Origin: Aphrocallistes beatrix
Taxonomy: Eukaryota; Porifera; Hexactinellida; Sceptrulophora; Aphrocallistidae
DNA: 64,000 nt
Assembly (NCBI GenBank): GCA_963281255.1
Contig: OY725488.1
Span: 9,955,524-10,019,523, forward strand
Direction of reading: 5' to 3'
Shown here: in pieces, positions 3,912 to 64,000 of the stretch
Layout of the letters: each line of letters starts with the position of its first letter
Position numbering within the stretch: the stretch's first letter is position 1
Position numbers and translations under genes: made by a program
The notes under the pieces: generated by a model
Seen by the model: the letters and a program-made list of their open reading frames with translations, nothing else
Databases searched by the model: none
What the model was told of the DNA's origin: nothing

Positions 3912-5183
3912 ATGGCAACAGCAGATCCAGGATCTGGTCCTGTTAGTTTATTCGGAGTGAGTAACAAACTCCAGAATAAAGTGAACTCGTTTAGAGAAAT
4001 GATTGAAAGGAAGAAGTTGGAAGTAAGAAGAATCAGCAAAGAAATGAGAATTTTAATCGAAAAGAAAGAAGAAGCAATAATCCAAGAATTGAATGCTATT
4101 TGGGAAGAAGTGAATACTAGAATGGAGAAAAGGAAAACAGATATTCAGACTAAAATCGGAGTCCTCGATGCCAAGGCGAAAGAAATGGAGCAACTATTCA
4201 CCGAATTAAATCCAGGAAGTGGTCCACTACTTAATATTTCTGAGAAACTCAATTCAGTGAGAAGAGAAATGGACATTGATATTCCTAATGTGAAGTTAAC
4301 GTGGAGAGTGGAAGAATTGAAAGATTGTATAAATAGAATGTGTCGTTGTAATCAACAGATTCTAGTTTATAATGAAGATACTCGGTATCAACTGAAATGG
4401 AGTAAATGCAAGGAAGGAAGTGGAGACAATCAACTCTATTATCCATGGGGTATAGCGACTAATTCTATGAATGAGAATATTTATGTAGCTGACCAATTAA
4501 ATAACAGAGTTCAGATTTTCTCTAGAGAAGGAGAATGGATCAGATCTGTGAAAGATGACGAGATGAAATATCCACAAAATATTCTATTTCACAACCAATC
4601 AATTTACGTACAATGTAGCAAAGCAATTCTGAAATTGAATGAATCTACTGAGAAGAAAGAAAAGTCTAAATCTTATGATTTTAATCTCAGAGGTATCTGT
4701 ACAGATAATATTCATATTTATGTCGGTCAATGGGAGGGAATGAATCTAATAGTGTTAACTCTAGATTTGATTGAAGAAAACAGAATATCTCTCAAGACTG
4801 AATTCTGTCAACAAGATACTCAAATCAGAGATATATCTCTATCCCAAGAATTGTTTTATATTTTGCTAATCAATACAGAATTTCCAATTCAAGCATTTTC
4901 TAGAGAAGGCATTCTGACAAGATGTGTTGTTAAGAAAGATAGCATTAACAATGTTTATCGTTTCTGTCTAGATCAGCAACACAACATCTTAGTGGCAGAC
5001 TTTGGAGACTCTAAAGTGAAGATATTTTCCAATGAAGGGAAACTACTCACTCAGTTTGGTGAGAAAGGATCTGAGAAAGGACAGTTCTCTGGACTTGCTG
5101 GATTATATTTGAGTGAATTAGGAGATATTGTCACTGTCCAGCAGAGCGGTTCAAACTTATTGAAATGTTTCTCTCGTTTCTGA
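3912..5183 (+). CDS. Coiled-coil/NHL-type beta-propeller protein, copy 2 (reference copy)
   Basis: 423 codons, no introns. Residues 1-25 are an invariant tail (MATADPGSGP...). Residues 26-120 are Glu/Lys-rich heptads, a coiled coil of cassette type A (IQTKIGVLDAKAKEMEQL). Residues 143-166 probably supply the strand closing the ring. Six blades start near 178, 221, 259, 305, 348 and 395, with NHL-like hallmarks in blade 1 (PWGIAT, IYVADQLNNRVQIFSREG) and blade 5 (NILVADFGDSKVKIFSNEG). There is no signal peptide, membrane span, RING or B-box, so a cytosolic protein is likely. Known NHL propellers bind RNA or protein on the loop face; the ligand here is unknown. Loops: YYPWG/DQLNN, KYPQ/CSKA, FNLRG/GQWEG, QQDTQ/LLINTEF, NNVYR/ADFGD, GLAGLY/QQSGS. 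The start is the ATG conserved in all copies after TTAGCAAATCTATA. Confidence 0.9.
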   Translation: MATADPGSGPVSLFGVSNKLQNKVNSFREMIERKKLEVRRISKEMRILIEKKEEAIIQELNAIWEEVNTRMEKRKTDIQTKIGVLDAKAKEMEQLFTELNPGSGPLLNISEKLNSVRREMDIDIPNVKLTWRVEELKDCINRMCRCNQQILVYNEDTRYQLKWSKCKEGSGDNQLYYPWGIATNSMNENIYVADQLNNRVQIFSREGEWIRSVKDDEMKYPQNILFHNQSIYVQCSKAILKLNESTEKKEKSKSYDFNLRGICTDNIHIYVGQWEGMNLIVLTLDLIEENRISLKTEFCQQDTQIRDISLSQELFYILLINTEFPIQAFSREGILTRCVVKKDSINNVYRFCLDQQHNILVADFGDSKVKIFSNEGKLLTQFGEKGSEKGQFSGLAGLYLSELGDIVTVQQSGSNLLKCFSRF

Positions 5184-5603
5184 TACTTCTCTGAATTTTG
5201 AACTTTTTCTATTTTATGAGTGTATTTTGTTATCTATCGTATTTTCGCTGTTTTGTGTTTACTTTCGTTTATCTTTCATTTTAATGATGCTACTTCATCC
5301 ATATTTTATTTTATTTTTATTTTTCAAAACTTGTTTATTCTTCTTCGCTCTAAAATTAGTATACTAACTATTCTATTTTGTGGTATTTTTTATTGTATTG
5401 AATTGTCTCCAATGATAGCATTTCTTACTGCTCAATTAATTATATTGGTTATTGTGGTAATTTAAAATACCTTCTCAGGCGTGGAATTATCATAATTAGA
5501 TTATTTGAATTTGTTTTCAGAGTTTTGTTTATTTTCTCTTAATAAATCAGCGAATCTTTATTAGAATTTAATTATTTTTTTGAATTTCTTTTAGTACTCA
5601 TTA
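5184..5603. other. 3' flank of propeller gene 2
   Basis: Pyrimidine-rich sequence beginning TTCTCTGAATTTTGAACTTTTTC, shared with most other copies and presumably containing the 3' UTR. AATAAA occurs near 5539, but no polyadenylation site can be proven. The 81-codon frame at 5220 is low-complexity T-rich sequence and is not convincing as a gene. Confidence 0.45.
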
Positions 5604-5611
5604 CTTTGGAT

Positions 5612-6037
5612 CTAAGTTGGCTAATTCATGAAAATATGGCAAAGAATTATGAATTATTCGAATAATTCATAATTCAAGCATGAATTAGTCAATCATAAGC
5701 GAACCAGCTACTGTCAGCATTGACTGCCGCAGGATGGGAGGAATCTGCTCAAGAGTTCTACGTAGCTGCTGACACGACTCGCGCGATGGAAGAAGGAGGT
5801 CTCGGTCTGAAGTTGACTAATTCATGATTAATGAATAATTCGAATAATTTATAATTCAGGAATTATGAATTATTCGAATAATTCAGAATCCTGTAAAATG
5901 AATTATTCGAAAAGTTCATTCATATAATTTATGATATTTTCTTGGAAAAACTTTCAATTTTTAATAATTCTTCTCAGGCTTGATGAATTATTCGAATTAT
6001 TCGAAAAATTCATTAATTCGTGAATTAGTCAACTTAG
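5612..6037. mobile_element. hAT-type MITE carrying a captured coding-like segment
   Basis: Terminal inverted repeats CTAAGTTGGCTAATTCATGA and (reverse complement of the right end) CTAAGTTGACTAATTCACGA. An exact 8-bp target duplication, CTTTGGAT, is at 5604-5611 and 6038-6045. Eight-bp duplications are typical of hAT transposition. The interior holds further copies of the terminal sequence (about 5670-5693 inverted, 5811-5830 direct), so the element looks like two small MITEs bracketing 5694-5810. No transposase is present. Confidence 0.8.
5699..5812 (+). other. Captured exon-like segment inside the MITE
   Basis: This stretch is much more GC-rich than the surrounding element and is open for 38 codons (begins ANQLLSALTAAGWEESAQEF, ends GGLGLK). 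The composition looks like real protein, mostly helical. I do not recognise the parent gene. It is best explained as a host gene fragment trapped between MITE ends. Confidence 0.4.
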
Positions 6038-6129
6038 CTTTGGATATATTCAGTGAATCTGATTTAAGAATTTAGAGAATATGGCACCCTTCATGTCCAA
6101 TAGATTTGCCTCTAGCCTGCCTAGTATGA

Positions 6130-7621: not shown

Positions 7622-7722
7622 TTCTTAATCAAGTAACACTCCTAATGAATTGGTTTTCTAGGTCAACCTATTCATTATGTCACCTCATGCAAAATCAAAA
7701 TTTTGAAAGTTATATACATAAG

Positions 7723-8960: not shown

Positions 8961-10222
8961 ATGGCAACAGCAGATCCAGGATCTGGTCCTGTTAGTTTAT
9001 TCGGAGTGAGTAACAAACTCCAGAGTAAAGTGAACTCGTTTAGAGAAGTGATTGAAAGGAAGAAATTGGAAGTGAGAAGAGTCAGCAAAGAAATGAGAAG
9101 TCTTATCGAAATGAAAGAAGAAGAAATAATCCGAGAATTGGATGCTATTTGGAAAGAGGTGAATACTAGAATGGAGAAAAGGAAAACTGAAACTCGAAAG
9201 AAAATACGAGAATTAGAGAGTAAGAAAAAAGAGATTGATACAATTCTTCTTGAACTCGATCCAGAAGAGACACAATTCCCTCAATTTTCTGAAGCGATAG
9301 AAAGAGCGAAGAAGAAAGAGAAAGACATTGATATTCCTAATGTGAGGTTGAAGTGGAGAGTGGATGAATTGAAAGATTGCATAAATATAATGTGTCGTTG
9401 TGATCAAAAGATTCTAGTTTATAATGAAGACACTCGGTATCAACTGAAATGGAGTAAATGCGTGGAAGGAAGAGGAGACAATCAACTCTATCGTCCATTT
9501 GGTATAGCGACTAATCCTATGAATGAGAATATTTATGTAGCTGACCAATCGAATCACAGAGTTCAGATCTTCTCTAGAGAAGGAGAATGGATCAGATCTG
9601 TGAAAGATGACGAAATGAAAATTCCACAAAATATTCTATTTCACAACCAATCAATTTACGTACAATGTTGTAGTGCAATTCTGAAATTGAATGATTTCAC
9701 TGAGAAGAAAGAAAAGTCTAAATCTTATGATTTTGGTCTCAGAGGTATCTGTACAGATAATATTCATATTTATGTCGGTCAATGGAATGGAATGAATCTA
9801 ATAGTGTTAACTCTAGATTTGATTGAAGAAAACAGAATATCTCTCAAGGCTGAATTCTGTAAACAAGATACTCAAATCAGAGATATATCTCTATCTCAAG
9901 AATTGTTTTACATTTTGCTATCCCAATTCAAGTATTTTCTAGAGAAGGCATCCTGACAAGATGTGTTGTTAAGAAAGATAGCATTAACAGTGCTTATTGT
10001 TTCTGTCTAGATCGGCAACACAACATCTTAGTATCAGACAGTGGAGACTCTAAAGTGAAGATATTTTCCAATGAAGGGAAGCTACTCACTCAGTTTGGTG
10101 CGAAAGGATCTGAGAAAGGACAGTTCTCTGGACTTGCTGGATTATCTTTGAGTGAATTAGGAGATATTGTCACTGTTCAGCAGAGCGATTCAAACCTACT
10201 GAAATGTTTCTTTCGTTTATGA
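8961..10222 (+). pseudogene. Coiled-coil/NHL propeller copy 3, one frameshift
   Basis: The conserved ATG is at 8961; an in-frame TTG at 8940 is not a credible animal start. The coiled coil is cassette B (KIRELESKKKEIDTILLEL). A 13-bp deletion near 9921 removes most of the blade-4 B-C loop and leads to a stop at 9954-9956. The frame then continues to TGA 10220-10222. Loops: YRPFG/DQSNH, KIPQ/CCSA, FGLRG/GQWNG, KQDTQ/deleted, NSAYC/SDSGD, GLAGLS/QQSDS. A truncated protein with three blades plus part of a fourth could still be made, but it could not close the ring. Confidence 0.88.
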
Positions 10223-13264: not shown

Positions 13265-14536
13265 ATGGCAACAGCAGATCCAGGATCTGGTCCTGTTAGT
13301 TTATTCGGAGTGAGTAACAAACTCCAGAATAAAGTGAACTCGTTTAGAGAAGTGATTGAAAGGAAGAAGTTGGAAGTAAGAAGAGTCAGCAAAGAAATGA
13401 GAAGTCTTATCGAAAAGAAAGAAGAAGAAATAATACGAGAATTAGACACTATCTGGAAAGAGGTGAATACTAAAATGGAGAAGAAGAAAACTGAAACCCA
13501 GAAAGAAATCGAAGAAAAAGAAAATCTTAGAAATGAAATGGAGAAAAGACTTTGTAAACTTAATCCTTCTTCCATCCAATTCAGTCATATATCCGAAGGA
13601 ATCGATTTAGTGAGAAGAGAAATGGATATTGATATTCCTAATGTGAAGTTAACGTGGAGAGTAGATGAATTGGAAGATTGTATTAATAGAATGTGTCGTT
13701 GTGATCAACAGATTCTAGTTTATAATGAAGAAACTCTGTATCAACTGAAATGGAGTAAATGCAAGGAAGGAAGTGGAGACAATCAACTCTATTATCCATG
13801 TGGTATAGCGACTAATCCTATGAATGAGAATATTTATGTAGCTGACCGATGGAATCACAGAGTTCAGATTTTCTCTAGAGAAGGAGAATGGATCAGATCT
13901 GTGAAAGATGACGAAATGATTTATCCACAAAATATTCTATTTCACAACCAATCAATTTACGTACAATGTACTAGGACAATTCTGAAATTGAAAGATACCA
14001 CTGAGAAGAAAGAAAAGTCTAAATCTTATGATTTTAATCTCAGAGGTATCTGTACAGATAATATTCATATTTATGTCGGTCAATGGAAGGGAATGAATCT
14101 AGTAGTGTTAACTCTAGATTTGATTGAAGAAAACAGAATGTCTCTCAAGACTGAATTCTGTAAACAAGATACTGGAATCAGAGATATATCTCTATCTCAA
14201 GAATTGTTTTATATTCTGCTATTCAATACAGAATTTCCAATTCAAGCATTTTCTAGAGAAGGCATTCTGACAAGATGTGTTGTTAAGAAAGATAGCATTA
14301 ACAATGCTTATTGTTTCTGTCTAGATCAGCAACACAACATCTTAGTAGCAGACTATGGAGACTCTAAAGTGAAGATATTTTCCAATGAAGGGAAACTACT
14401 CACTCAGTTCGGTGAGAAAGGATCTGAGAAAGGACAGTTCTCTCAACTGTTTGGAATATCTTTGAGTGAATTTGGGGATATTGTCACTGTTCAACGAAGT
14501 CCTCCGAATTTATTGAATCATTTTTCCCTTTTATGA
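13265..14536 (+). CDS. Coiled-coil/NHL propeller protein, copy 4
   Basis: 423 codons from the conserved ATG; an upstream in-frame TTG at 13244 is not used. The coiled-coil segment is the third version, C (EIEEKENLRNEMEKRLCKLN, then IQFSHISEGIDLVRREM), shared only with copy 15. Loops: YYPCG/DRWNH, IYPQ/CTRT, FNLRG/GQWKG, KQDTG/LLFNTEF, NNAYC/ADYGD, QLFGIS/QRSPP. The C-terminal end is the NLLNHFSLL type, which goes with a distinct 3' flank containing the pogo-like MITE at 14713. Confidence 0.9.
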   Translation: MATADPGSGPVSLFGVSNKLQNKVNSFREVIERKKLEVRRVSKEMRSLIEKKEEEIIRELDTIWKEVNTKMEKKKTETQKEIEEKENLRNEMEKRLCKLNPSSIQFSHISEGIDLVRREMDIDIPNVKLTWRVDELEDCINRMCRCDQQILVYNEETLYQLKWSKCKEGSGDNQLYYPCGIATNPMNENIYVADRWNHRVQIFSREGEWIRSVKDDEMIYPQNILFHNQSIYVQCTRTILKLKDTTEKKEKSKSYDFNLRGICTDNIHIYVGQWKGMNLVVLTLDLIEENRMSLKTEFCKQDTGIRDISLSQELFYILLFNTEFPIQAFSREGILTRCVVKKDSINNAYCFCLDQQHNILVADYGDSKVKIFSNEGKLLTQFGEKGSEKGQFSQLFGISLSEFGDIVTVQRSPPNLLNHFSLL

Positions 14537-16142: not shown

Positions 16143-16318
16143 TCAGGGGGAGTGGACAGGAGCGTGAGGGTGTGGGAGGTTGCTACTGGGAGGTGTTTAC
16201 GTCTGATTCAGTTGGAAGACAGTGTGAGTGACTTGGAATTCTCTCCCACACCAGCTCACACGCTCTTGTTAGCTGGTAGCGGAGAGTCAGTGCTGATCAT
16301 TAATCATAAGATAGGAAA
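16143..16318 (+). pseudogene. BOP1-like fragment 2 (WD40 piece only)
   Basis: 58 codons, from [20 protein letters not shown] through SDLEFSPTPAHTLLLAGSGE to NHKIGK, in frame without BOP1NT. It ends at the same ATAAGATAGGAAA junction as fragments 3, 5, 6 and 8. Its intact short frame does not make a functional propeller. It precedes propeller gene 5. Confidence 0.85.
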
Positions 16319-17795: not shown

Positions 17796-19067
17796 ATGGC
17801 AACAGCAGATCCAGGATCTGGTCCTGTTAGTTTATTCGGAGTGAGTAACAAACTCCAGAGTAAAGTGAACTCGTTTAGAGAAGTGATTGAAAGGAAGAAG
17901 TTGGAAGTAAGAAGAGTCTGCAAAGAAATCAAGAGTCTTATCGAAAAGAAAGAAGAAGAAATAATCCGAGAATTGGATGCTATTTGGGAAGAAGTGAATA
18001 CTAAAATGGAGGAGAAGAAAACTGAAACGCACAAAAAGATCATAGAATTAGAAATTAAGAAAAAAGAGATTGATAAGATCCTTCTAGAGCTCAATCAAAC
18101 TGCGACAGAATATCCCCAATTATCTGAAGCAATAGAAAAATCGAAAAGAGAAATGGACATTGATATTCCTAATGTGAAGTTAACGTGGAGAGTGGAAGAA
18201 TTGAAATATTGTATTAATAGAATGTGTCGTTGTGATCAACAGATTCTAGTTTATAATGAAGACACTCGGTATCAACTGAAATGGAGTAAATGCGAGGAAG
18301 GAAGAGGATACAATCAACTCTATTGTCCATTTGGTATAGCGACTAATCCTATGAATGAGAATATTTATGTAGCTGACCAATCGAATAACAGAGTTCAGAT
18401 TTTCTCTAGAGAAGGAGAATGGATCAGATCTGTGAAAGATGACGAAATGAAAAATCCACGAAATATTCTATTTCACAACCAATCAATTTACGTACAATGT
18501 ATTAGAGCAATTCTGAAATTGAATGAATCCACTGAAAAGAAAGAAAAGTCTAAATCTTATGATTTTTATCTCAGAGGTATCTGTACAGATAATATTCTTA
18601 TTTATGTCGGTCAATGGAAGGGAATGAATCTAATAGTGTTAACTCTAGATTTGATTGAAGAAAACAGAATATCTCTCAAAACTGAATTCTGTAAACAAGA
18701 AACTGGAATCAGAGATATATCTCTATTTCAAGGATTGTTGTACATTTTGCTATTCAATACAGAATTCCCAATTCAAGCATTTTCTAGAGAAGGCATTCTG
18801 ACAAGATGTGTTGTTAAGAAATATAGCATTAACAGTGCTTATTGTTTCTGTCTAGATCAGCAACACAACATCTTAGTAGCAGACAATGGAGACTCTAAAG
18901 TGAAGATATTTTCCAATGAAGGGAAGCTACTCACTCAGTTCGGTGTGAAAGGATTTGAGAACGGACAGTTCTCTCAACTGTCTGGAATTTTTTTGAGTGA
19001 ATTAGGAGATATTTTCACTGTTCAGCTGTTCAATTCAAACTTATTGAAATGTTTCTCTCGTTATTGA
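17796..19067 (+). CDS. Coiled-coil/NHL propeller protein, copy 5
   Basis: 423 codons. The coiled coil is a diverged B cassette (KIIELEIKKKEIDKILLELN, then TATEYPQLSEAIEKSKREM). Loops: YCPFG/DQSNN, KNPR/CIRA, FYLRG/GQWKG, KQETG/LLFNTEF, NSAYC/ADNGD, QLSGIF/QLFNS. Some scaffold positions that are otherwise constant also differ (SLFQGLLYILL in blade 4, GVKGFENGQF before blade 6, DIFTVQ in blade 6), so this is one of the more diverged copies. It carries the ordinary LLKCFSRY-type C-terminus. Confidence 0.9.
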   Translation: MATADPGSGPVSLFGVSNKLQSKVNSFREVIERKKLEVRRVCKEIKSLIEKKEEEIIRELDAIWEEVNTKMEEKKTETHKKIIELEIKKKEIDKILLELNQTATEYPQLSEAIEKSKREMDIDIPNVKLTWRVEELKYCINRMCRCDQQILVYNEDTRYQLKWSKCEEGRGYNQLYCPFGIATNPMNENIYVADQSNNRVQIFSREGEWIRSVKDDEMKNPRNILFHNQSIYVQCIRAILKLNESTEKKEKSKSYDFYLRGICTDNILIYVGQWKGMNLIVLTLDLIEENRISLKTEFCKQETGIRDISLFQGLLYILLFNTEFPIQAFSREGILTRCVVKKYSINSAYCFCLDQQHNILVADNGDSKVKIFSNEGKLLTQFGVKGFENGQFSQLSGIFLSELGDIFTVQLFNSNLLKCFSRY

Positions 19068-21727: not shown

Positions 21728-23002
21728 ATGGCAACAGCAGATCCAGGATCTGGTCCTGTTAGTTTATTCGGAGTGAGTAACAAACTCCAGATTAAAGTGA
21801 ACTCGTTTAGAGAAGTGATTGAAAGGAAGAAGTTGGAAGTAAGAAGAGTCAGCAAAGAAATGAGTAGTCTTATCGAAAAGAAAGAAGAAGAAATAATCCG
21901 AGAATTGAATGCTATTTGGGAAGAAGTGTGTACTAGAATGGAGAAGACGAAAAATGATATTCAGAAGAAAATCGGAGTCCTAGAATCCAAAGCGAAAGAA
22001 ATGGAGCAACTATTCACAGAATTAAATCCAGGAAGTGGTCCACTATATGATATTTCTGAGAAACTCAACTCAGTAAAAAGAGAAATGAATATTGATATTC
22101 CCAATGTGAAGTTAACATGGAGAATGGATGAATTGAAAGATTGTATAAATAGAATGTGTCGTTGTGATCAACAGATTCTAGTTTATAATGAAGATACTCG
22201 GTATCAACTGAAATGGAGTAAATGCGAGGAAGGAAGAGGAGACAATCAACTCTATCATCCATTTGGTATAGCGACTAATCCTATGAATGAGAATATTTAT
22301 GTAGCTGACCAATGGAATCACAGAGTTCAGGTTTTCTCTAGAGAAGGAGAATGGATCAGATCTGTGAAAGATGACGAAATGAAACATCCACAAAATATTC
22401 TATTTCACAACCAATCAATTTACGTTCAATGTAATACAGCAATTCTGAAATTGAATGAATTCACTGAGAAGAAAGAAAAGTCTAAATCTTATGATTTTAT
22501 TCTCAGAGGTATCTGTACAGATAATATTCATATTTATGTCGGTCAAAGGAGAGGAATGAATCTAATAGTGTTAACTCTAGATTTGATTGAAGAAAACAGA
22601 ATATCTCTCAAGACTGAATTCTGTCAACAAGAAACTGAAATCAGAGATATATCTCTATCTCAAGAATTGTTTTACGTTTTGCTATTCAATACAGAATTTC
22701 CAATTCAAGCATTTTCTAGAGAAGGCATTCTGACAAGATGTGTTGTTAAGAAAGATAGCATTAACAGTGCTTATTGTTTCTGTCTAGATCAGCAACACAA
22801 CATCTTAGTAGCAGACTGTGGAGACTCTAAAGTGAAGATATTTTCCAATGAAGGGAAGCTACTCACTCAGTTCGGTGAGAAAGGATCTGAGAAAGGACTG
22901 TTCTCTTCTCTTACTGGAATATCTTGGAGTGAATTGGGAGATATTGTCACTGTTCTGCAGAGCAATTCAAACAATTTGAAATGTTTCTCTGTTCGTTTGT
23001 GA
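21728..23002 (+). CDS. Coiled-coil/NHL propeller protein, copy 6
   Basis: 424 codons. Cassette A-prime coiled coil (IQKKIGVLESKAKEMEQLF; SGPLYDISEKLNSVKREM). Promoter and the first 176 residues are identical or almost identical to copy 9 (34375), after which the loops diverge. Loops: YHPFG/DQWNH, KHPQ/CNTA, FILRG/GQRRG, QQETE/LLFNTEF, NSAYC/ADCGD, SLTGIS/LQSNS. Blade 6 reads GISWSELGDIVTVLQSNSNN and the protein ends KCFSVRL, one residue longer than usual. Confidence 0.9.
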   Translation: MATADPGSGPVSLFGVSNKLQIKVNSFREVIERKKLEVRRVSKEMSSLIEKKEEEIIRELNAIWEEVCTRMEKTKNDIQKKIGVLESKAKEMEQLFTELNPGSGPLYDISEKLNSVKREMNIDIPNVKLTWRMDELKDCINRMCRCDQQILVYNEDTRYQLKWSKCEEGRGDNQLYHPFGIATNPMNENIYVADQWNHRVQVFSREGEWIRSVKDDEMKHPQNILFHNQSIYVQCNTAILKLNEFTEKKEKSKSYDFILRGICTDNIHIYVGQRRGMNLIVLTLDLIEENRISLKTEFCQQETEIRDISLSQELFYVLLFNTEFPIQAFSREGILTRCVVKKDSINSAYCFCLDQQHNILVADCGDSKVKIFSNEGKLLTQFGEKGSEKGLFSSLTGISWSELGDIVTVLQSNSNNLKCFSVRL

Positions 23003-24453: not shown

Positions 24454-25728
24454 ATGGCAACAGCAGATCCAGGATCTGGTCCTGTTAGTTTATTCGGAGT
24501 GAGTAACAAACTCCAGAGTAAAGTGAACTCGTTTAGAGAAATGATTGAAAGGAAGAAGTTGGAAGTAAGAAAAGTCAGCAAAGAAATGAGAAGTCTTATC
24601 GAAAAGAAAGAAGAAGAAATAATCCAAGAATTGGATGCTATTTGGAAAGAAGTGAATACTAGAATGGAGAAAAGGAAAACAGATATTCAGACTAAAATCG
24701 GAGTCCTCGATGCCAAGGCGAAAGAAATGGAGCAACTATTCACCGAATTAAATCCAGGAAGTGGTCCACTACTTAATATTTCTGAGAAACTCAATTCTGT
24801 AAGAAGAGAAATGAATATTGATATTCCTAATGTGAAGTTAACGTGGAGAGTTGATGAATTGAAAGATTGTATAAATAGAATGTGTCGTTGTGATCAACAG
24901 ATTCTAGTTTATAATGAAGATACTCGGTATCAACTGAAATGGAGTAAATGCGAGAAAGGAAGAGGAGACAATCAACTCAATAATCCATGGGGTATAGCGA
25001 CTAATCCTATGAATGAGAATATTTATGTAGCTGACCAATCGAATCACAGAGTTCAGATTTTCTCTAGAGAAGGAGAATGGATCAGATCTGTGAAATATGA
25101 CGAAATGAAATCTCCAGAAAATATTCTATTTCACAACCAATCAATTTACGTTCAATGTGATAGAGTAATTCTGAAATTGAATGAATCCACTGAGAAGAAA
25201 GAAAAGTCTAAATCTTATGATTTTAATCTCAGAGGTATCTGTACAGATAATATTCATATTTATGTCGGTCAATGGAAGGGAATGAATCTAATAGTGTTAA
25301 CTCTAGATTTGATTGAAGAAAACAGAATATCTCTCAAGACTGAATTCTGTAATCAAGAAACTAAAATCAGAGATATATCTCTATCTCAAGAATTGTTTTA
25401 CATTTTGCTATCTAATACAGAATTTCCAATTCAAGTATTTTCTAGAGAAGGCATTCTGACAAGATGTGTTGTTAAGAAAGATAGCATTAACTATGCTTAT
25501 TGTTTCTGTCTAGATCAGCAACACAACATCTTAGTAGCAGACTGTGGAGACTCTAAAGTGAAGATATTTTCCAATGAAGGGAAGCTACTCACTCAGTTCG
25601 GTGAGAAAGGATCTGAGAAAGGACAGTTCTCCTCATTAATTGGTATTTACTTTTTGAATGAATTAGGAGATATTGTCACTGTTCAGTGGACGAAATCAAA
25701 TGTATTGCAGTGTTTCTCTCTTTTATGA
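24454..25728 (+). CDS. Coiled-coil/NHL propeller protein, copy 7
   Basis: 424 codons, cassette A coiled coil nearly identical to copies 2 and 12. Loops: NNPWG/DQSNH, KSPE/CDRV, FNLRG/GQWKG, NQETK/LLSNTEF, NYAYC/ADCGD, SLIGIY/QWTKS. Blade 6 has one extra residue (GIYFLNELGDI). Only 2.7 kb separate it from the preceding copy, the shortest interval in the array. Confidence 0.9.
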   Translation: MATADPGSGPVSLFGVSNKLQSKVNSFREMIERKKLEVRKVSKEMRSLIEKKEEEIIQELDAIWKEVNTRMEKRKTDIQTKIGVLDAKAKEMEQLFTELNPGSGPLLNISEKLNSVRREMNIDIPNVKLTWRVDELKDCINRMCRCDQQILVYNEDTRYQLKWSKCEKGRGDNQLNNPWGIATNPMNENIYVADQSNHRVQIFSREGEWIRSVKYDEMKSPENILFHNQSIYVQCDRVILKLNESTEKKEKSKSYDFNLRGICTDNIHIYVGQWKGMNLIVLTLDLIEENRISLKTEFCNQETKIRDISLSQELFYILLSNTEFPIQVFSREGILTRCVVKKDSINYAYCFCLDQQHNILVADCGDSKVKIFSNEGKLLTQFGEKGSEKGQFSSLIGIYFLNELGDIVTVQWTKSNVLQCFSLL

Positions 25729-44507: not shown

Positions 44508-45770
44508 ATGGCAACAGCAGATCCAGGACCTGGTCCTGTTAGTTTATTCGGAGTGAGTAACAAACTCCAGAGTAAAGTGAACTCGTTTAGAGAAGTGATT
44601 GAAAGGAAGAAGTTGGAAGTGAGAAGAGTTAGCAAAGAAATGAGAAGTCTTATCGAAACGAAAGAAGAAGAAATAATCCGAGAATTGGATGCTATTTGGG
44701 AAGAAGTGAATACTAAAATGGAGAAGAAGAAAACTGAAACTCAAAATAAAATACGAGAATTAGAGAATAAGAAAAATGAGATTGATAAAATTCTTCTAGA
44801 ACTCGATCCAGATGAGACACAATTTCCTCAATTTTCTGAAGCAATAGAAAAAGCGAAGAAGAAAGAAAAAGACATTGATATTCCTAATGTGAAGTTAACG
44901 TGGAGAGTTGATGAATTGAAAGATTGTGTAAATAGAATGTGTCGTTGTGATCAACAGATTCTAGTTTATAATGAAGATACTCGGTATCAACTGAAATGGA
45001 GTAAATGCGAGGAAAGAAGAGGAGACAATCAACTCTATTATCCATGGGGTATAGCGACTAATCCTATGAATGAGAATATTTGTGTAGCTGACCTATGGAA
45101 TAACAGAGTTCAGATTTTCTCTAGAGAAGGAGAATGGATCAGATCTGTGAAAGATGACGAAATGAAATATCCACTAAATATTCTATTTCACAACCAATCA
45201 ATTTACGTACAATGTACTAGAGCAATTCTGAAATTGAATGAATCCACTGAGAAGAAAGAAAAGTCTAAATCTTATGATAATCCTCTCAGAGGTATCTGTA
45301 CAGATAATATTCATATTTATGTCGGTCAATGGAATGGAATGAATCTAATAGTGTTAACTCTAGATTTGATTGAAGGAAACAGAATATCTCTCAAGACTGA
45401 ATTCTGCCAAGAAGATACTCAAATCAGAGATATATCTCTATCTCAAGAATTGTTTTACATTTTGCTATTCAATACAGAATTTCCAATTCAAGCATTTTCT
45501 AGAGAAGGCATTCTGACAAGATGTGTTGTTAAGAAAGATAGCATTAACTGTGCTTATTGTTTCTGTCTAGATCAGCAACACAACATCTTAGTAGCAGACT
45601 GTGGAGACTCTAAAGTGAAGATATTTTCCAATGAAGGGAAGCTACTCACTGAGATCAGTGAGAAAGGACGGTTCTCTGGATTGTTTGGAATTTCTTTGAG
45701 TGAATTAGGAGATATTGTCACTGTTCAGCGAAGTCCTCAGAATTTATTGAATCATTTTTCTATTTTATGA
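44508..45770 (+). CDS. Coiled-coil/NHL propeller protein, copy 11
   Basis: 420 codons, cassette B coiled coil (KIRELENKKNEIDKILLELD). SEKG before blade 6 is absent. Loops: YYPWG/DLWNN, KYPL/CTRA, NPLRG/GQWNG, QEDTQ/LLFNTEF, NCAYC/ADCGD, GLFGIS/QRSPQ. Blade 3 uniquely replaces DFxL by DNPL. The promoter is odd: the usual TATA position reads TAGAGAA, so expression may be weaker or start elsewhere. C-terminus is the NLLNHFSIL type with the palindromic MITE in the 3' flank. Confidence 0.9.
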   Translation: MATADPGPGPVSLFGVSNKLQSKVNSFREVIERKKLEVRRVSKEMRSLIETKEEEIIRELDAIWEEVNTKMEKKKTETQNKIRELENKKNEIDKILLELDPDETQFPQFSEAIEKAKKKEKDIDIPNVKLTWRVDELKDCVNRMCRCDQQILVYNEDTRYQLKWSKCEERRGDNQLYYPWGIATNPMNENICVADLWNNRVQIFSREGEWIRSVKDDEMKYPLNILFHNQSIYVQCTRAILKLNESTEKKEKSKSYDNPLRGICTDNIHIYVGQWNGMNLIVLTLDLIEGNRISLKTEFCQEDTQIRDISLSQELFYILLFNTEFPIQAFSREGILTRCVVKKDSINCAYCFCLDQQHNILVADCGDSKVKIFSNEGKLLTEISEKGRFSGLFGISLSELGDIVTVQRSPQNLLNHFSIL

Positions 45771-46894: not shown

Positions 46895-47073
46895 CTTATC
46901 ACACCATTTAGTTATATCACAGATTGAGAGACCTGCCCCTCTGTTCGTTTTTCACATTTTGATTACCTCCACATTTTTTGTTTGAACATTCCTTCTATCA
47001 AAATTATATTGTAGAAATTTTGAAATTAGTTTCAAATAATTCAATTTACCTCTTACATAAATGGAATAAAGGA

Positions 47074-49047: not shown

Positions 49048-50307
49048 ATGGCAACAGCAGATCCAGGATCTGGTCCTGCTAGTTTATTCGGAGTGAGTAA
49101 CAAACTCCAGAGTAAAGTGAACTCGTTTAGAGAAATGATTGAAAGGAAGAAGTTGGAAGTAAGAAGAGTCAGCAAAGAAATGAGAAGTCTAATCGAAAAG
49201 AAAGAAGAAGCAATAATACAAGAATTGAATGCTATTTGGGAAGAAGTGAATACTAGAATGGAGAAAAGGAAAACAGATATTCAGACTAAAATCGGAGTCC
49301 TCGATGCCAAGGCGAAAGAAATGGAGCAACTATTCACCGAATTAAATCCAGGAAGTGGTCCACTACTTAATATTTCTGAGAAACTCAATTCAGTGAGAAG
49401 AGAAATGGACATTGATATTCCTAATGTGAAGTTAACGTGGAGAGTGGATGAATTGAAAGATTGTATAAATAGAATGTGTCGTTGTAATCAACAGATTCTA
49501 GTTTATAATGAAGATACTCGGTATCAACTGAAATGGAGTAAATGCGAGAAAGGAAGAGGAGACAATCAACTCTATCGTCCATTTGGTATAGCGACTAATC
49601 CTATGAATGAGAATATGTATGTAGCTGACCAATGGAATTACAGAGTTCAGATTTTCTCTAGAGAAGGAGAATGGATCAGATCTGTGAAAGATAACGGGAT
49701 GAAACATCCACAAAGTATTCTATTTCACAACCAATCAATTTACGTACAATGTATTACAGCAATTCTGAAATTGAATGAATCCACTGAGCAGAAAGAAAAG
49801 TCTAAATCTTATGATTTTGGTCTCAGAGGTATCTGTACAGATAATATTCATATTTATGTCGGTCAATGGAAGGGAATGAATCTAATAGTGTTAACTCTAG
49901 ATTTGATTGAAGAAAACAGAATATCTCTCAAGACTGAATTCTGTAACCAGAATACTGGAATCACAGATATATCTCTATCTCAAGAATTGTTCTATATTTT
50001 GCTATTCAATACAGAATTTCCAATTCAAGCATTTTCTAGTGAAGGCATTCTGACAAGATGTGTTGTTAAGAAAGATAGCATTAACCGTGCTTATTGTTTC
50101 TGTCTAGATCAGCAACACAACATCTTAGTAGCAGACAATGGAGACTCTAAAGTGAAGATATTTTCCAATGAAGGGAAGCTACTCACTCAGTTCGGTGAGA
50201 AAGGACAGTTCTCTGTAATGTTTGGAATATCTTTGACTGAATTAGGAGATATTGTCACTGTTCAGTGGAGCAATTCAAACTTATTGAAATGTTTCTCTCG
50301 TTTCTGA
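49048..50307 (+). CDS. Coiled-coil/NHL propeller protein, copy 12
   Basis: 419 codons, SEKG absent. N-terminal tail has GSGPAS for GSGPVS, as in copy 14. Cassette A coiled coil, close to copies 2 and 7. Loops: YRPFG/DQWNY, KHPQ/CITA, FGLRG/GQWKG, NQNTG/LLFNTEF, NRAYC/ADNGD, VMFGIS/QWSNS. Small scaffold changes include KDNGMKHPQS for KDDEMKHPQN and ITDIS for IRDIS. Confidence 0.9.
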   Translation: MATADPGSGPASLFGVSNKLQSKVNSFREMIERKKLEVRRVSKEMRSLIEKKEEAIIQELNAIWEEVNTRMEKRKTDIQTKIGVLDAKAKEMEQLFTELNPGSGPLLNISEKLNSVRREMDIDIPNVKLTWRVDELKDCINRMCRCNQQILVYNEDTRYQLKWSKCEKGRGDNQLYRPFGIATNPMNENMYVADQWNYRVQIFSREGEWIRSVKDNGMKHPQSILFHNQSIYVQCITAILKLNESTEQKEKSKSYDFGLRGICTDNIHIYVGQWKGMNLIVLTLDLIEENRISLKTEFCNQNTGITDISLSQELFYILLFNTEFPIQAFSSEGILTRCVVKKDSINRAYCFCLDQQHNILVADNGDSKVKIFSNEGKLLTQFGEKGQFSVMFGISLTELGDIVTVQWSNSNLLKCFSRF

Positions 50308-53354: not shown

Positions 53355-54617
53355 ATGGCAACAGCAGATCCAGGATCTGGTCCTGTTAGTTTATTCGGAG
53401 TGAGCAACAAACTCCAGAGTAAAGTGAACTCGTTTAGAGAAGTGATTGAAAGGAAGAAGTTGGAAGTAAGAAGAGTCAGCAAAGAAATGAGAAGTCTTAT
53501 CCAAGAGAAAGAAGAATCAATAATCCGAGAATTAGATGCTATTTGGAAAGAAGTGAATACTAGAATGGAGAAGACGAAAACTGAAACTCAAAAGAAAATA
53601 CGAGAATTAGAGAGTAAGAAAAAAGAGATTGATAAAATTCTTCTTGAACTCGATCCAGAAGAGACACAATTCCCTCAATTTTCTGAAGCGATAGAAAGAG
53701 CGAAGAAGAAAGAAAAAGACATTGATATTCCTAATGTGAAGTTGAAGTGGAGAGTTGATGAATTGAAAGATTGCATAAATAGAATGTGTCGTTGTGATCA
53801 ACAGATTCTAGTTTATAATGAAGATACTCGGTATCAACTGAAATGGAGTAAATGCGAGAAAGGAAGAGGAGACAATCAACTCTCTGGTCCATGGGGTATA
53901 GCGACTAATCCTATGAATGAGAATATTTATGTAGCTGACCAATGGAATCACAGAGTTCAGATTTTCTCTAGAGAAGGAGAATGGATCAGATCTGTGAAAG
54001 ATGACGAAATGAAAATTCCACAAAATATTCTATTTCACAACCAATCAATTTACGTACAATGTTGTAGTGCAATTCTGAAATTGAATGATTTCACTGAGAA
54101 GAAAGAAAAGTCTAAATCTTATGATTTTCATCTCAGAGGTATCTGTACAGATAATATTCATATTTATGTTGGTCAATGGAAGGGAGTGAATCTAGTAGTG
54201 TTAACTCTAGATTTGATTGAAGAAAACAGAATATCTCTCAAGACTGAATTCTGTAAACAAGATACTGAAATCAGAGATATATCTCTATCTCAAGAATTGT
54301 TTTACATTTTGCTATTCAATACAGAATTCCCAATTCAAGCATTTTCTAGAGAAGGCATTCTGACAAGATGTGTTGTTAAGAAAGATAGCATTAACAATGC
54401 TTCTTGTTTCTGTCTAGATCAGCAACACAACATCTTAGTAGCAGACTATGGAGACTCTAAAGTGAAGATATTTTCTAATGAAGGGAAACTACTCATTCAG
54501 TTCGGTGAGAAAGGACAGTTCTCTACACTGTTTGGAATATCTTTGACTAAATTAGGAGATATTATCACTGTTCAGCGAAGCCCTTTGAATTTCCTGAAGC
54601 GTTTTTCTCTTTTTTGA
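53355..54617 (+). CDS. Coiled-coil/NHL propeller protein, copy 13
   Basis: 420 codons, SEKG absent, cassette B coiled coil identical in parts to copies 1 and 3. Blades 2 and 3 match copy 1 exactly in the loops, but blade 1 entry is unique (SGPWG). Loops: SGPWG/DQWNH, KIPQ/CCSA, FHLRG/GQWKG, KQDTE/LLFNTEF, NNASC/ADYGD, TLFGIS/QRSPL. Ends NFLKRFSLF, a variant of the 'P' C-terminus, followed by the palindromic MITE flank. Confidence 0.9.
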   Translation: MATADPGSGPVSLFGVSNKLQSKVNSFREVIERKKLEVRRVSKEMRSLIQEKEESIIRELDAIWKEVNTRMEKTKTETQKKIRELESKKKEIDKILLELDPEETQFPQFSEAIERAKKKEKDIDIPNVKLKWRVDELKDCINRMCRCDQQILVYNEDTRYQLKWSKCEKGRGDNQLSGPWGIATNPMNENIYVADQWNHRVQIFSREGEWIRSVKDDEMKIPQNILFHNQSIYVQCCSAILKLNDFTEKKEKSKSYDFHLRGICTDNIHIYVGQWKGVNLVVLTLDLIEENRISLKTEFCKQDTEIRDISLSQELFYILLFNTEFPIQAFSREGILTRCVVKKDSINNASCFCLDQQHNILVADYGDSKVKIFSNEGKLLIQFGEKGQFSTLFGISLTKLGDIITVQRSPLNFLKRFSLF

Positions 54618-59332: not shown

Positions 59333-60613
59333 ATGGCAACAGCAGATCCAGGATCTGGTCCTGCTAGTTTATTCGGAGTGACTAACAAACTCCAGAATAA
59401 AGTGAACTCGTTTAGAGAAGTGATTGAAAGGAAGAAGTTGGAAGTAAGAAGAGTCAGCAAAGAAATGAGAAATCTTATCAAACAGAAAGAAGAAGCAATA
59501 ATCCGAGAATTGGAAAACATTTGGGAAGAAGTGAATGCTAGAATTGAGAGGAAGAAAACTGAAACTCAAAAGAAAATAAGAGAGTTAGAGCGTAAGAAGA
59601 GAGAGATTGATAAAATGATTCTTGAACTCAATCCAACCGAGACACAATTCCCTCTTCAATTTTCTGAAGCAATAGAAAGAGCGAAAAAAGAAATGGATAT
59701 TGATATTCCTAATGTGAAGTTAACGTGGAGAGTTGACGAATTGAAAGATTGTATAAATAGAATGTGTCGTTGTGATCAACAGATTCTAGTTTATAATGAA
59801 GATACTCGGTATCAACTGAAATGGAGTAAATGCGAGGAAGGAAGAGGAGACAATCAACTCAATGATCCATTTGGTATAGCGACTAATCCTATGAATGAGA
59901 ATATTTATGTAGCTGACCAATCGAATCACAGAGTTCAGATTTTCTCAAGAGAAGGAGAATGGATCAGATCTGTGAAAGATGACGAAATGGAAAATCCACT
60001 AAATATTATATTTCACAACCAATCAATTTACGTACAATGTGATAGAGCAATTCTGAAATTGAATGAATCCACTGAGAAGAAAGAAAAGTCTAAATCTTAT
60101 GATTTTTATCTCGGAAGTATCTGTACAGATAATATTCATATTTATGTCAGTCAATGGAAAGGAATGAATCTAATACTAGTAGTCTTAACTCTAGATTTGA
60201 TTGAAGAAAACAGAATATCTCTCAAAACTGAATTCTGTCAACAAGATACTCAAATCAGAGATATATCTCTATCTCAAGAATTGTTTTATATTTTGCTATC
60301 CAATACGGAATTTCCAATTCAAGTATTTTCTAGAGAAGGCATTCTGACAAGATGTGTTGTTAAGAAAGATAGCATTAACAATGCTTATTGTTTCTGTCTA
60401 GATCAGCAACACAACATCTTAGTAGCAGACGATGAAGACTCTAAAGTGAAGATATTTTCCAATGAAGGAAAGCTACTCACTCAGTTCGGTGAGAAAGGAT
60501 CTGATAAAGAACAGTTCTCTGCACTAACTGGAATATCTTTGGGTGAATTTGGAGATATCGTCACTGTTCAGCAGTGCGATTCAAACTTATTGAAAGGTTT
60601 CTCTCGTCCATGA
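59333..60613 (+). CDS. Coiled-coil/NHL propeller protein, copy 14
   Basis: 426 codons, the longest copy. The coiled coil is a variant of B (KIRELERKKREIDKMILELN; FPLQFSEAIERAKKEM). Two extra residues follow blade 3 (NLILVVLTL for NLIVLTL). Loops: NDPFG/DQSNH, ENPL/CDRA, FYLGS/SQWKG, QQDTQ/LLSNTEF, NNAYC/ADDED, ALTGIS/QQCDS. ADDED replaces the otherwise fixed Gly of blade 5. Confidence 0.9.
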   Translation: MATADPGSGPASLFGVTNKLQNKVNSFREVIERKKLEVRRVSKEMRNLIKQKEEAIIRELENIWEEVNARIERKKTETQKKIRELERKKREIDKMILELNPTETQFPLQFSEAIERAKKEMDIDIPNVKLTWRVDELKDCINRMCRCDQQILVYNEDTRYQLKWSKCEEGRGDNQLNDPFGIATNPMNENIYVADQSNHRVQIFSREGEWIRSVKDDEMENPLNIIFHNQSIYVQCDRAILKLNESTEKKEKSKSYDFYLGSICTDNIHIYVSQWKGMNLILVVLTLDLIEENRISLKTEFCQQDTQIRDISLSQELFYILLSNTEFPIQVFSREGILTRCVVKKDSINNAYCFCLDQQHNILVADDEDSKVKIFSNEGKLLTQFGEKGSDKEQFSALTGISLGEFGDIVTVQQCDSNLLKGFSRP

Positions 60614-61076: not shown

Positions 61077-61414
61077 GTGATGAAGCTAGTGGTGGCTATC
61101 AGGAACGGTTGGATTAAACCCAGGAAAGAATTCGAGATTGATGAGAAGCCCTATTTCCATCTTTTATGGTCGGATACTCCGGATGATAACAAGAGCAGTA
61201 AAGATACGCTGCCACACATTCCAGCGCCTAAATTGCGTCTCCCAGGACACAGAGAGTCGTACCACCCCCCACCCGAGTACCTCCCCTCCTCAGAAGAGGA
61301 GGAGAAGTGGAACGGAAAGAGCAAGCGAGAGAGAAAGCTGGGAGAGTTCCTTCCCACCCAGTATGCCTCCATGCTAGACATCCCCGCCTACCCCAGATCT
61401 ACCAGGAGAGATTC
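61077..61414 (+). pseudogene. BOP1-like fragment 10 (end of BOP1NT)
   Basis: Reads MKLVVAIRNGWIKPRKEFEI to GEFLPTQYASMLDIPAYP with the shared C loss, then ends at ACCAGGAGAGATTC. A second scrap, NLVAQALMKKL (61527-61560), follows 110 bp later and matches the end of fragment 1, so fragments 1 and 10 come from the same ancestral unit. Confidence 0.88.
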
Positions 61415-61422
61415 GAGAGATT

Positions 61423-61466: not shown

Positions 61467-61570
61467 TGAATACAGTTATTTTGAGTCTACAATTTGATTG
61501 TTAAAAGTTATTTTATGATATAAATAACCTAGTAGCACAGGCTCTGATGAAGAAGCTTTTTATTATTTAA

Positions 61571-62620: not shown

Positions 62621-62848
62621 TATTGCATACTAAAATGGATGATCACCAACTGTACAGTATCTATGTAATATTGAAGTATGGTATGGTCACTACTGTGTAT
62701 GTTGAAAATTGATTCTACTGCATTGTGAGAATAGTACTATGCCTAAACTAATTATAGAAACACAACGGATAAGATCGAATAAGATTATTCTACCACAGCT
62801 TAATGTATTTAAGTGAATTGAATAATGAACTCTCATTAAATCTACTTC

Positions 62849-62855
62849 TATATAA
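62849..62855 (+). promoter_or_regulatory. TATA-like box of propeller gene 15
   Basis: TATATAA with CTGAACTG, 43 bp before the ATG. Confidence 0.5.
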
Positions 62856-62891
62856 CTGAACTGTTCAAATTTGAATAATAGCAAATCTATA

Positions 62892-64000
62892 ATGGCAACA
62901 GCAGATCCAGGATCTGGTCCTGTTAGTTTATTCGGAGTGAGTAACAAACTCCAGAATAAAGTGAACTCGTTTAGAGAAGTGATTGAAAGGAAGAAGTTAG
63001 AAGTAAGAAGAGTCAGCAAAGAAATGAGAAGTCTTATCGAAAAGAAAGAAGAAGAAATAATCCGAGAATTGGATGACATTTGGAAAGAAGTAAATAATAA
63101 AATGGAGAAGAAGAAAACTGAAACTCAGAAAGAAATTGAAGAAATAGAAAACCTTAGAAAAGAAATGGAGAGAAGACTTTGTAAACTTAATCCTGCTTCC
63201 ATCCAATTCAGTCATATATCCGAAGGAATCGATTTAGTGAAAAGAGAAATGGATATTGATATTCCTAATGTGAAGTTAACGTGGAGAGTTGATGAATTGA
63301 AAGATTGTATAAATAGAATGTGTCATTGTAATCAACAGATTCTAGTTCATAATGAAGATACTCGGTATCAACTGAAATGGAGTAAATGCGAGGAAGGAAG
63401 AGGAGACAATCAACTCTATTTTCCATGGGGTATAGCGACTAATCCTATGAATGAGAATATTTATGTAGCTGACAATGGGAATGACAGAGTTCAGATTATC
63501 TCTAGAGAAGGAGAATGGATCAGATCTGTGAAAGATGACGAAATGAAATCTCCACAAAATATTCTATTTCACAACCAATCAATTTACGTACAGTGTGATA
63601 CAGCAATTCTGAAATTGAATGAATCCACTGAGAAGAAGGAAAAGTCTAAATCTTATGATTTTAGTCTCAGAGGTATCTGTACAGATAATATTCATATTTA
63701 TGTCGGCCAATGGAAGGGAATGAATCTAATAGTGTTAACTCTAGATTTGATTGAAGAAAACAGAATATCTCTCAAGACTGAATTCTGTAAACAAGATACT
63801 CAAATCAGAGATATATCTCTATCTCAAGAATTGTTTTACATTTTGCTATTCAATACAGAATTTCCAATTCAAGCATTTTCTAGAGAAGGCATTCTGACAA
63901 GATGTGTTGTTAAGAAAGATAGCATTAACAGTGCTTATTGTTTCTGTCTAGATCAGCAACACAACATCTTAGTAGCAGACTATGGAGACTCTAAAGTGAA
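62892..64000 (+). CDS. Coiled-coil/NHL propeller protein, copy 15 (3' end beyond window)
   Basis: Open from the conserved ATG to the last base (369 codons), ending inside blade 5. Cassette C coiled coil, shared with copy 4 (EMERRLCKLN, IQFSHISEGIDLVKREM). Loops: YFPWG/DNGND, KSPQ/CDTA, FSLRG/GQWKG, KQDTQ/LLFNTEF, NSAYC/ADYGD. Scaffold changes include CHCNQQILVHNED for CRCDQQILVYNED and QIISREG for QIFSREG. Upstream sequence is nearly identical to that of copy 3. Confidence 0.85.
   Translation, partial: MATADPGSGPVSLFGVSNKLQNKVNSFREVIERKKLEVRRVSKEMRSLIEKKEEEIIRELDDIWKEVNNKMEKKKTETQKEIEEIENLRKEMERRLCKLNPASIQFSHISEGIDLVKREMDIDIPNVKLTWRVDELKDCINRMCHCNQQILVHNEDTRYQLKWSKCEEGRGDNQLYFPWGIATNPMNENIYVADNGNDRVQIISREGEWIRSVKDDEMKSPQNILFHNQSIYVQCDTAILKLNESTEKKEKSKSYDFSLRGICTDNIHIYVGQWKGMNLIVLTLDLIEENRISLKTEFCKQDTQIRDISLSQELFYILLFNTEFPIQAFSREGILTRCVVKKDSINSAYCFCLDQQHNILVADYGDSKV

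What the first reader, a model, noticed from the sequence alone, without database searches (positions are those of the whole stretch)
3912..64000. Tandem propeller family diversifies one face of a fixed scaffold
Seen directly: across 15 copies the propeller scaffold is almost invariant, while changes cluster at two sites per blade. In copy-2 numbering these are 176-179 and 195-198 (blade 1), 219-222 and 236-238 (2), 258-260 and 273-275 (3), 300-304 and 320-324 (4), 347-350 and 364 (5), 394-399 and 411-414 (6). Examples: blade 1 entry YRPW, YYPW, YHPF, NNPW, SGPW, NDPF, YLPW; blade 2 CCS, CSK, CTR, CIR, CNT, CDR, CWT. Known fold: in NHL propellers the D-A and B-C loops of every blade lie on the same face, used by Brat/TRIM71-type proteins for ligand binding. 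Inference: the array encodes a repertoire of binding surfaces on one scaffold, comparable in logic to other multigene recognition families. No signal peptide suggests intracellular recognition. This is the best candidate for an undescribed system here.
Basis: partly seen in the sequence, partly recalled or inferred. Interest (0 to 1): 0.92.

Follow-up and report, generated by a model that had tools for sequence, protein, structure and literature searches.

The report
Tandem NHL propellers with diversified face
A row of fifteen closely similar gene copies, eleven of them intact, keeps one propeller-shaped protein frame but changes, under what looks like strong diversifying selection, almost only the residues on one binding face, as expected of a family of recognition proteins whose targets are unknown.

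Summary
The window looks eukaryotic and carries 15 tandem copies of a single-exon gene, a TRIM-like coiled coil followed by a six-bladed NHL propeller. Eleven ORFs are intact, one is cut by the window end, three are broken or partial. In the propeller, 24 hypervariable codons differ in 72% of pairwise comparisons, against 7.7% at the other 242. Twenty-two of the 24 lie on one side, in D-A loops, B-C loops or adjoining strand ends. A site-class test rejects no positive selection (2dlnL 265; maximum 50 in 30 null simulations that included recombination). D-A loops have dN/dS 4-5, bottom loops about 0.5. B-C loops are only about 1, because their synonymous rate is raised too. In blade 1 the sites coincide with LIN41 RNA contacts. 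Synonymous change is low over codons 151-390 (0.00-0.11) while flanks differ by 17-28%, and nearest neighbours change along the gene, which suggests concerted evolution. The coiled coil holds three old sequence types that vary independently of the face. The nearest logic in print is the fungal hnwd WD40 family. Ligand, expression, polymorphism and species are unknown; immunity is inference.

The parts
1..988 (+). copy 1, partial (cut by window start) and frame-broken near 700
   Evidence: blastn/tblastn
3912..5183 (+). copy 2, intact ORF 423 aa; reference numbering
4131..4271 (+). copy 2 codons 74-120: divergent coiled-coil segment, three main sequence types across copies
4437..4448 (+). blade 1 D-A loop / start of strand A variable site (codons 176-179)
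4494..4505 (+). blade 1 B-C loop variable site (codons 195-198)
4566..4577 (+). blade 2 D-A variable site (codons 219-222)
4617..4625 (+). blade 2 B-C variable site (codons 236-238)
4683..4691 (+). blade 3 D-A variable site (codons 258-260)
4728..4736 (+). blade 3 B-C variable site (codons 273-275; only 275 has 4 or more residue types)
4809..4823 (+). blade 4 D-A variable site (codons 300-304)
4869..4883 (+). blade 4 B-C site (codons 320-324), weakly variable
4950..4961 (+). blade 5 D-A variable site (codons 347-350)
5001..5003 (+). blade 5 B-C variable site (codon 364)
5091..5108 (+). blade 6 D-A variable site (codons 394-399)
5142..5153 (+). blade 6 B-C variable site (codons 411-414)
8961..10222 (+). 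copy 3, frame-broken near 9900
13265..14536 (+). copy 4, intact
17796..19067 (+). copy 5, intact
21728..23002 (+). copy 6, intact
24454..25728 (+). copy 7, intact; modelled protein
28749..30020 (+). copy 8, intact
34375..35634 (+). copy 9, intact; codons 1-148 identical in DNA to copy 6
39546..40813 (+). copy 10, broken by a stop near 39880
44508..45770 (+). copy 11, intact
49048..50307 (+). copy 12, intact
53355..54617 (+). copy 13, intact
59333..60613 (+). copy 14, intact
62892..64000 (+). copy 15, open frame cut by window end
3752..3911 (+). upstream block of copy 2, alignable before all 14 copies whose start lies in the window (81 to about 500 nt by pair, one pair without a blast hit), with an A+T-rich TATA-like stretch just upstream (TATATAACTGAACTG in several copies); promoter role inferred

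Best explanation
A tandem gene family encodes probably cytosolic, RING-less and B-box-less TRIM-NHL-like proteins. The N-terminal helix (13-99 in the model) probably makes a dimer. The six-bladed NHL propeller presents one face, built from D-A and B-C loops, as a binding surface. Shown by sequence and models: copies keep the scaffold and change that face under diversifying selection, and segments of different history are combined along the gene. Inferred: each copy binds a different ligand, unequal crossing-over or gene conversion homogenises the scaffold and reshuffles faces, and the coiled-coil types govern pairing with each other or with complete TRIM ligases. The most likely use is intracellular recognition of a fast-changing or non-self target, by a protein or RNA contact; the target itself is unknown.
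For: NHL propeller: Pfam E 1.5e-10 for copy 7; nearest solved relatives Thin, TRIM71, Brat, TRIM2, Mei-P26 by sequence and fold (propeller model pLDDT 74.5, pTM 0.74). Site-class selection. By structural class: D-A dN/dS 4.85 (p 1.3e-5) and 3.98 (p 7e-5) with strand assignments from two models that share input sequences; A-B plus C-D 0.49 and 0.53. Hypervariable codons: 22 of 24 on the top side (hypergeometric p 1.8e-5), 23 of 26 with the second model (p 1e-4). Codon 177: nine residues in 15 copies with the third base always T. LIN41 contacts C563, R564, R581, S582 align with 176, 177, 195, 196. Mosaic history: PHI p 0.001 for the whole CDS of 11 intact copies; coiled-coil distance and face distance uncorrelated over 12 copies (r 0.00). 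Full-length ORFs intact in 11 of 15 copies.
Against: B-C loops do not reach dN/dS above 1 as a class. Over all pairs of 12 copies the top loops together have pN/pS only 1.28, and the recent pair 6/9 has 16.2 replacement to 2.8 synonymous changes there, little above the 190:39 ratio of sites. The rate-variable (FUBAR-like) test names only 6 or 7 sites above 0.9. PHI within the propeller is weak (p 0.038) and not significant once variable codons are removed (p 0.43), so exchange within the propeller is less sure than exchange between coiled coil and propeller. No expression, polymorphism or ligand data. Nothing in the sequence names immunity. The full-length model has mean pLDDT 65. Absence of a signal peptide was judged by eye only.
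Confidence: 0.66

Rival explanations
1. The face diversifies for RNA binding: each copy recognises a different RNA (own messages, transposon or viral RNA), as LIN41 and Brat do with the same surface.
For: Variable sites align with LIN41 RNA-contact residues in blade 1, and codon 364 with K628 across blades; nearest solved relatives include RNA-binding NHL domains.
Against: LIN41 binds mainly through basic residues (passages). Here the variable set is rich in S, Q, N and its net charge runs from -2 to +5 among 11 copies, so no shared basic patch at these sites. Three LIN41 contacts (D629, R676, R770) align with residue 365, nearly invariant here.
Confidence: 0.25
2. Allorecognition: the face is highly polymorphic within the species and compares self with other, as in fungal het genes.
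For: Same geometry and evolution as the Podospora hnwd genes, some of which act in heterokaryon incompatibility.
Against: No allele data; one haplotype only.
Confidence: 0.15
3. Local hypermutation or small-tract conversion, not selection, makes these codons variable.
For: Synonymous rate is raised at the variable codons (alpha 1.75, interval 0.93-2.85, against 0.52 at the rest), chiefly in B-C loops.
Against: In D-A loops the synonymous rate is low (0.24-0.48) with replacement rate 1.2-2.3; third base fixed at codons 177, 220, 258, 347, 364; bases change in several directions, not from A only as in bacterial diversity-generating retroelements (recalled pattern).
Confidence: 0.1
4. Relaxed constraint on surface loops of decaying duplicates.
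For: Three of 15 copies are broken.
Against: Bottom-loop classes have dN/dS 0.38-0.90 and other propeller codons 0.6; variable codons change 3.4 to 5.3 times faster at replacement than at synonymous sites (chosen by residue types, so partly circular); 11 ORFs intact.
Confidence: 0.07
5. Mosaic structure is an assembly artefact of near-identical repeats.
For: Tandem copies 92-99% alike over 300 nt are hard to assemble; the assembly method is unknown.
Against: Artefact would not make third-base-fixed, replacement-rich variation confined to one face; unit flanks differ clearly.
Confidence: 0.06

Closest known systems
HET-D/HET-E (hnwd) WD40 NLR family of Podospora anserina (PMC1805685)
   Same: Beta-propeller under diversifying selection at paired sites in the loop from strand d to a of the next repeat and in the b-c turn, all on one face, with concerted evolution of the rest (passages).
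   Different: Fungal NACHT-WD40 proteins whose near-identical repeats are exchanged within and between genes; here six dissimilar NHL blades, no NACHT, and the variation lies between tandem paralogues.
Class VII TRIM-NHL proteins (TRIM2/3/32/71, Brat, Mei-P26, Thin)
   Same: Coiled coil followed by NHL propeller; same fold; same face used for RNA in Brat and LIN41 (passages).
   Different: No RING or B-box found in 4 scanned ORFs or by motif in the 64 kb; no filamin domain in the Pfam scan; tandem multigene array with face under diversifying selection.
Fish finTRIM and primate TRIM5-type B30.2 families (recalled; TRIM-evolution papers seen only as listings)
   Same: TRIM-related multigene recognition families with positively selected binding loops.
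   Different: Different recognition domain (B30.2, not NHL).
Coral tachylectin-2 (PMC2880987)
   Same: Beta-propeller protein of an early-branching animal with positive selection.
   Different: Selected sites there showed no significant clustering trend and no match to binding residues (passages); lectin, not NHL.

Membership tests
TRIM-NHL (class VII TRIM) | C-terminal six-bladed NHL propeller | tested here: met
   Pfam NHL above cut-off in 4 of 4 copies scanned; Foldseek Thin, Brat, TRIM71
TRIM-NHL (class VII TRIM) | RING finger | tested here: not met
   No Pfam hit in the 4 of 15 copies scanned; no match to a recalled motif on either strand of the 64 kb; exons outside the window or split exons not excluded
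TRIM-NHL (class VII TRIM) | B-box | tested here: not met
   As for RING
TRIM-NHL (class VII TRIM) | TRIM-type antiparallel coiled coil | tested here: inconclusive
   TRIM_CC best 26.5 bits, below its cut-off of 30, in 4 copies scanned; helix 13-99 in the model; dimer not modelled
hnwd-type diversified propeller | Positively selected sites in d-a and b-c loops on one face | tested here: met
   B-C loops met by M2a site posteriors, not by class average
hnwd-type diversified propeller | Concerted evolution of the propeller units | tested here: inconclusive
   pS 0.00-0.11 over codons 151-390 against 17-28% flank divergence; mosaic neighbours; no outgroup species to prove concerted evolution
hnwd-type diversified propeller | NACHT plus WD40 repeats | tested here: not met
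   Pfam scan of 4 copies: NHL, no NACHT or WD40 listed
LIN41/Brat-type RNA-binding NHL | Fixed basic or aromatic RNA-contact residues | tested here: not met
   Equivalent positions 176, 177, 195, 196, 364 vary (3 to 9 residue types); 6 of 14 LIN41 contacts could not be placed; net charge of the variable set -2 to +5
Immune receptor family | Induction by or binding of microbes or viruses | not testable with these tools
   No expression or binding data

The most novel reading that the evidence does not exclude
An animal-type (metazoan-like) intracellular recognition repertoire built on an NHL propeller: a tandem array in which concerted evolution keeps one scaffold while diversifying selection rewrites the top face, convergent with the fungal WD40 hnwd system. 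Independently varying coiled-coil types may decide which partner each receptor couples to.
Probability: 0.42. Interest if true: 0.9.

Novelty: new variant of a known kind. Interest (0 to 1): 0.76.

Why it matters
NHL domains are known mostly as conserved regulators of development (recalled). A tandem family that varies positions with which LIN41 touches RNA would show the domain used as a diversified receptor, and would be a second, independent case of the fungal hnwd design: fixed propeller, rewritten face, sequence exchange between copies. It makes a question testable: what do these faces bind, and do lineages without antibodies use propellers as a cytosolic repertoire? The listings of ten searches of the held library showed no such NHL family. 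Only the top 7 to 20 papers of each were seen (one search returned none), and subscription papers are mostly not held.

Tried and rejected
Whole-genome family count: no genome is held for this window. Relatives in GTDB genomes and IMG/VR: 71 and 105 stretches matched short patterns, none confirmed, so neither the family's spread nor the species could be found. Metazoan origin is my inference from TRIM-like domain content, the BOP1 gene and a LINE-like element, not a test. tRNAs and Rfam families at gathering score: none. RING or B-box exons: no match to recalled motifs. Diversity-generating retroelement: rejected, since variable bases are not confined to A sites and the RT found is an RVT_1 ORF on the other strand, LINE-like in my recall. 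VIA-align library not available. Bacterial NCBIfam hits (ScyF, LegC2/C7, LIC_12708) are far below cut-off and probably reflect NHL repeats and coiled coil.

Limits of the selection tests: written by me in Python (MG94 x HKY, fixed topology), not PAML or HyPhy. Likelihood fits used 12 of 15 copies (copy 15 incomplete); pieces of copies 1, 3 and 10 were left out of them but counted in the residue-type tallies. One search used 423 of 429 alignment columns. PHI and nearest-neighbour counts used the 11 intact copies. Recombination does inflate the null (2dlnL 7 to 50 in 30 simulations), so nominal p-values are too small by an unknown amount. Choosing codons by number of residue types and then quoting their dN/dS is circular for the replacement rate; the structural-class fits are not. 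Class boundaries followed DSSP but were typed by hand, with blade-6 ends set by judgement; strand 3D was absent from the second model and was placed as in the first. A blade-6 tree failed and ended early; the remaining tallies were rerun and blade 6 alone was not fitted. Fisher tests on minimum change counts are only marginal (p 0.031 for loops, 0.036 for sides). M2a also flags 6 coiled-coil sites with one tree and 1 with segment trees.
Full report
WHAT IS THERE. The window has no tRNA and no Rfam match, what looks like eukaryotic gene content, and no held genome. A 300-nt probe finds 15 same-strand copies spaced 2.7-6.0 kb apart. Full extents come from blastn and tblastn: 11 intact ORFs of 419-426 aa, one open ORF cut by the window end, and three broken or partial copies. 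Each protein has a helix (residues 13-99 of the model), a linker and a six-bladed propeller (copy 7 modelled). Pfam finds NHL repeats above cut-off in all 4 copies scanned (of 15) and TRIM_CC below cut-off. Solved relatives by sequence and by fold are Thin, TRIM71/LIN41, Brat, TRIM2 and Mei-P26. No RING or B-box motif matched in the 64 kb.

THE VARIABLE SITES. Twenty-four of 266 propeller codons have four or more residue types. Eleven intact copies differ at 72.3% of these and at 7.7% of the other 242; every pair of intact copies differs at 12 to 21 of the 24. Codon 177 is the clearest: Arg, Tyr, Asn, Cys, His, Gly, Asp, Phe and Leu among 15 copies, third base always T.

ONE FACE. Strand assignment from the models places the sites in loops D-A and B-C and in the adjoining ends of strands. 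One search's tally is 7 D-A, 11 B-C, 4 upper strand ends, 1 lower strand and 1 A-B codon; 22 of 24 on top gives p 1.8e-5. The second, better model gives 23 of 26 with part of the tail included, p 1e-4. The loop excess was reached by 0 of 254 rotations of the labels, the whole-side excess by 2 of 254. No atomic coordinates were available to me, so the face is assigned by topology, not measured. That D-A and B-C loops share a face is textbook propeller geometry (recalled) and is stated for WD40 in PMC1805685 (passages). For NHL, RNA is bound on the charged top surface (PMC9070667, passages). Aligning our profile to zebrafish LIN41 and using the contact list of PMC5908797 (passages), 8 of 14 contact residues could be placed. 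I set the numbering offset on R564; the other seven then carry the expected letter. C563, R564, R581, S582 fall on 176 (three residue types), 177 (nine), 195 (five) and 196 (four), and K628 on 364 (five). D629, R676, R770 fall on 365, nearly invariant here. Domains 2 to 4 of that alignment pair our blade 5 with several LIN41 blades, so blade 1 is the cleanest test.

SELECTION. Site-class models (my code, 12 of 15 copies): M1a against M2a 2dlnL 255 with one tree and 210 with four segment trees; M8a against M8 240 and 203; in M2a 10% and 7% of sites with omega 5.0 and 7.1. Thirty data sets simulated without positive selection on the mosaic trees gave 7.4-49.9, observed 265 in the same run with a coarser grid. 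Sites with M2a posterior above 0.9: 27 with one tree (9 B-C, 6 D-A, 3 upper strand, 3 C-terminal, 6 coiled coil) and 23 with segment trees (10, 8, 2, 2, 1); none in A-B, C-D or lower strands. A model with variable synonymous rates names fewer: 6 and 7. By structural class, D-A loops have dN/dS 4.85 and 3.98, bottom loops 0.49 and 0.53, coiled coil 0.46. B-C loops have 1.00 and 1.21 because synonymous change is high there (alpha 3.48, interval 1.96-5.99, in blades 1-5, against 0.92 for codons of the same blades outside the variable set). Simple pairwise counts are milder: pN/pS 1.28 for all top loops, 0.41 for bottom loops. I cannot separate multi-base changes, local mutation and escape from conversion in B-C loops. 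So the claim 'dN/dS well above 1' is firm for D-A loops and for some individual B-C codons, not for B-C loops as a class.

CONCERTED SCAFFOLD, SHUFFLED PARTS. Mean synonymous difference by 30 codons runs 0.008, 0.106, 0.416, 0.521, 0.161, then 0.00-0.11 across codons 151-390, then 0.289 at 391-420. Close flanks differ by 16.7% upstream (130 nt) and 27.9% downstream (90 nt) on average. The nearest copy often changes from window to window; PHI is 0.270 against 0.527 expected, p 0.001, for the whole CDS, p 0.038 in the propeller, and p 0.43 there without the variable codons. Copies 6 and 9 are identical over codons 1-148 yet differ by about 16 replacement and 3 synonymous changes in top loops. 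Coiled-coil types and faces are uncorrelated (Mantel r 0.00, p 0.50) and neither follows map distance. The plain reading is exchange between copies that keeps the scaffold alike while selection keeps faces different; assembly error could add to the mosaic.

COILED COIL. Residues 74-120 fall into three main types by my reading of the alignment, with deep synonymous divergence (pS 0.52) and pN/pS 0.55: old, constrained types between two better conserved stretches. I infer pairing classes; TRIM coiled coils make antiparallel dimers (PMC9732051, passages).

GENE UNITS. Upstream DNA is alignable before all 14 copies whose start is in the window, with a TATA-like stretch, so each copy probably carries its own promoter. 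Spacers hold BOP1 fragments in 10 of 14 gaps.

HOW IT PROBABLY WORKS. Shown by computation: fold, one-side variation, diversifying selection, mosaic history. Inferred: dimeric cytosolic proteins, each with its own ligand, produced by tandem duplication and exchange. Without a RING they would act as adaptors or decoys, or through partner TRIMs. I favour recognition of changing non-self targets; RNA targets and allorecognition remain open.

KNOWN OR NEW. The logic matches the Podospora hnwd genes down to the loops. It is not a member: no NACHT, no WD40. It is TRIM-NHL-like but fails the RING and B-box tests. In the listings of ten searches I saw no report of a diversified NHL family; PMC3503706 passages discuss TRIM subfamily C and degenerate TRIMs but not this. 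I rate it a new variant of a known kind.

Noticed in passing
7722-8640, 16143-16318, 19718-20879, 23345-24002, 32354-33520, 37587-38163, 42626-43099, 47074-48205, 56966-58574, 61077-61415: BOP1 (ribosome biogenesis) fragments on the same strand in 10 of 14 gaps, mostly 95-98% alike in DNA. No BOP1 ORF exceeds 311 aa, against 746 in a solved human BOP1 chain. A frame change sits at a C-run: 4 C in 6 of 7 places found, 5 C in one. Yet the BOP1NT frame shows a purifying signature (S 30, N 38, ratio 0.34, p 4e-5), while the WD frame does not clearly (S 13, N 26, ratio 0.65, p 0.20). Unexplained.
   Followed up: partly
4131-4271 and equivalents: Three main old sequence types in the coiled coil (residues 74-120) that vary independently of the propeller face.
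   Followed up: partly
1411-2997 (-) and 42246-42360 (-): Reverse transcriptase ORF (RVT_1, 528 aa; LINE-like in my recall) and a small piece of a relative.
   Followed up: no
41036-41278 / 41779-42021 and 55489-55700 / 56022-56233: Long inverted repeats (95% and 85% complementary), perhaps foldback or MITE-like elements.
   Followed up: no
B-C loops, e.g. codons 235-237, 275, 322, 324, 412 of copy 2: Raised synonymous rate in B-C loops, not in D-A loops.
   Followed up: partly
upstream 2 kb of copies 6, 9 and 12: 94-98% identity over up to 2 kb, marking recent unit-sized duplications, while copy 12 carries the coiled-coil type of copy 2.
   Followed up: partly
46665-46985: ORF with a short repeated motif (GIPMGFPYGNSHGFPIREFPWVSHTG), probably a translated minisatellite.
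   Followed up: no
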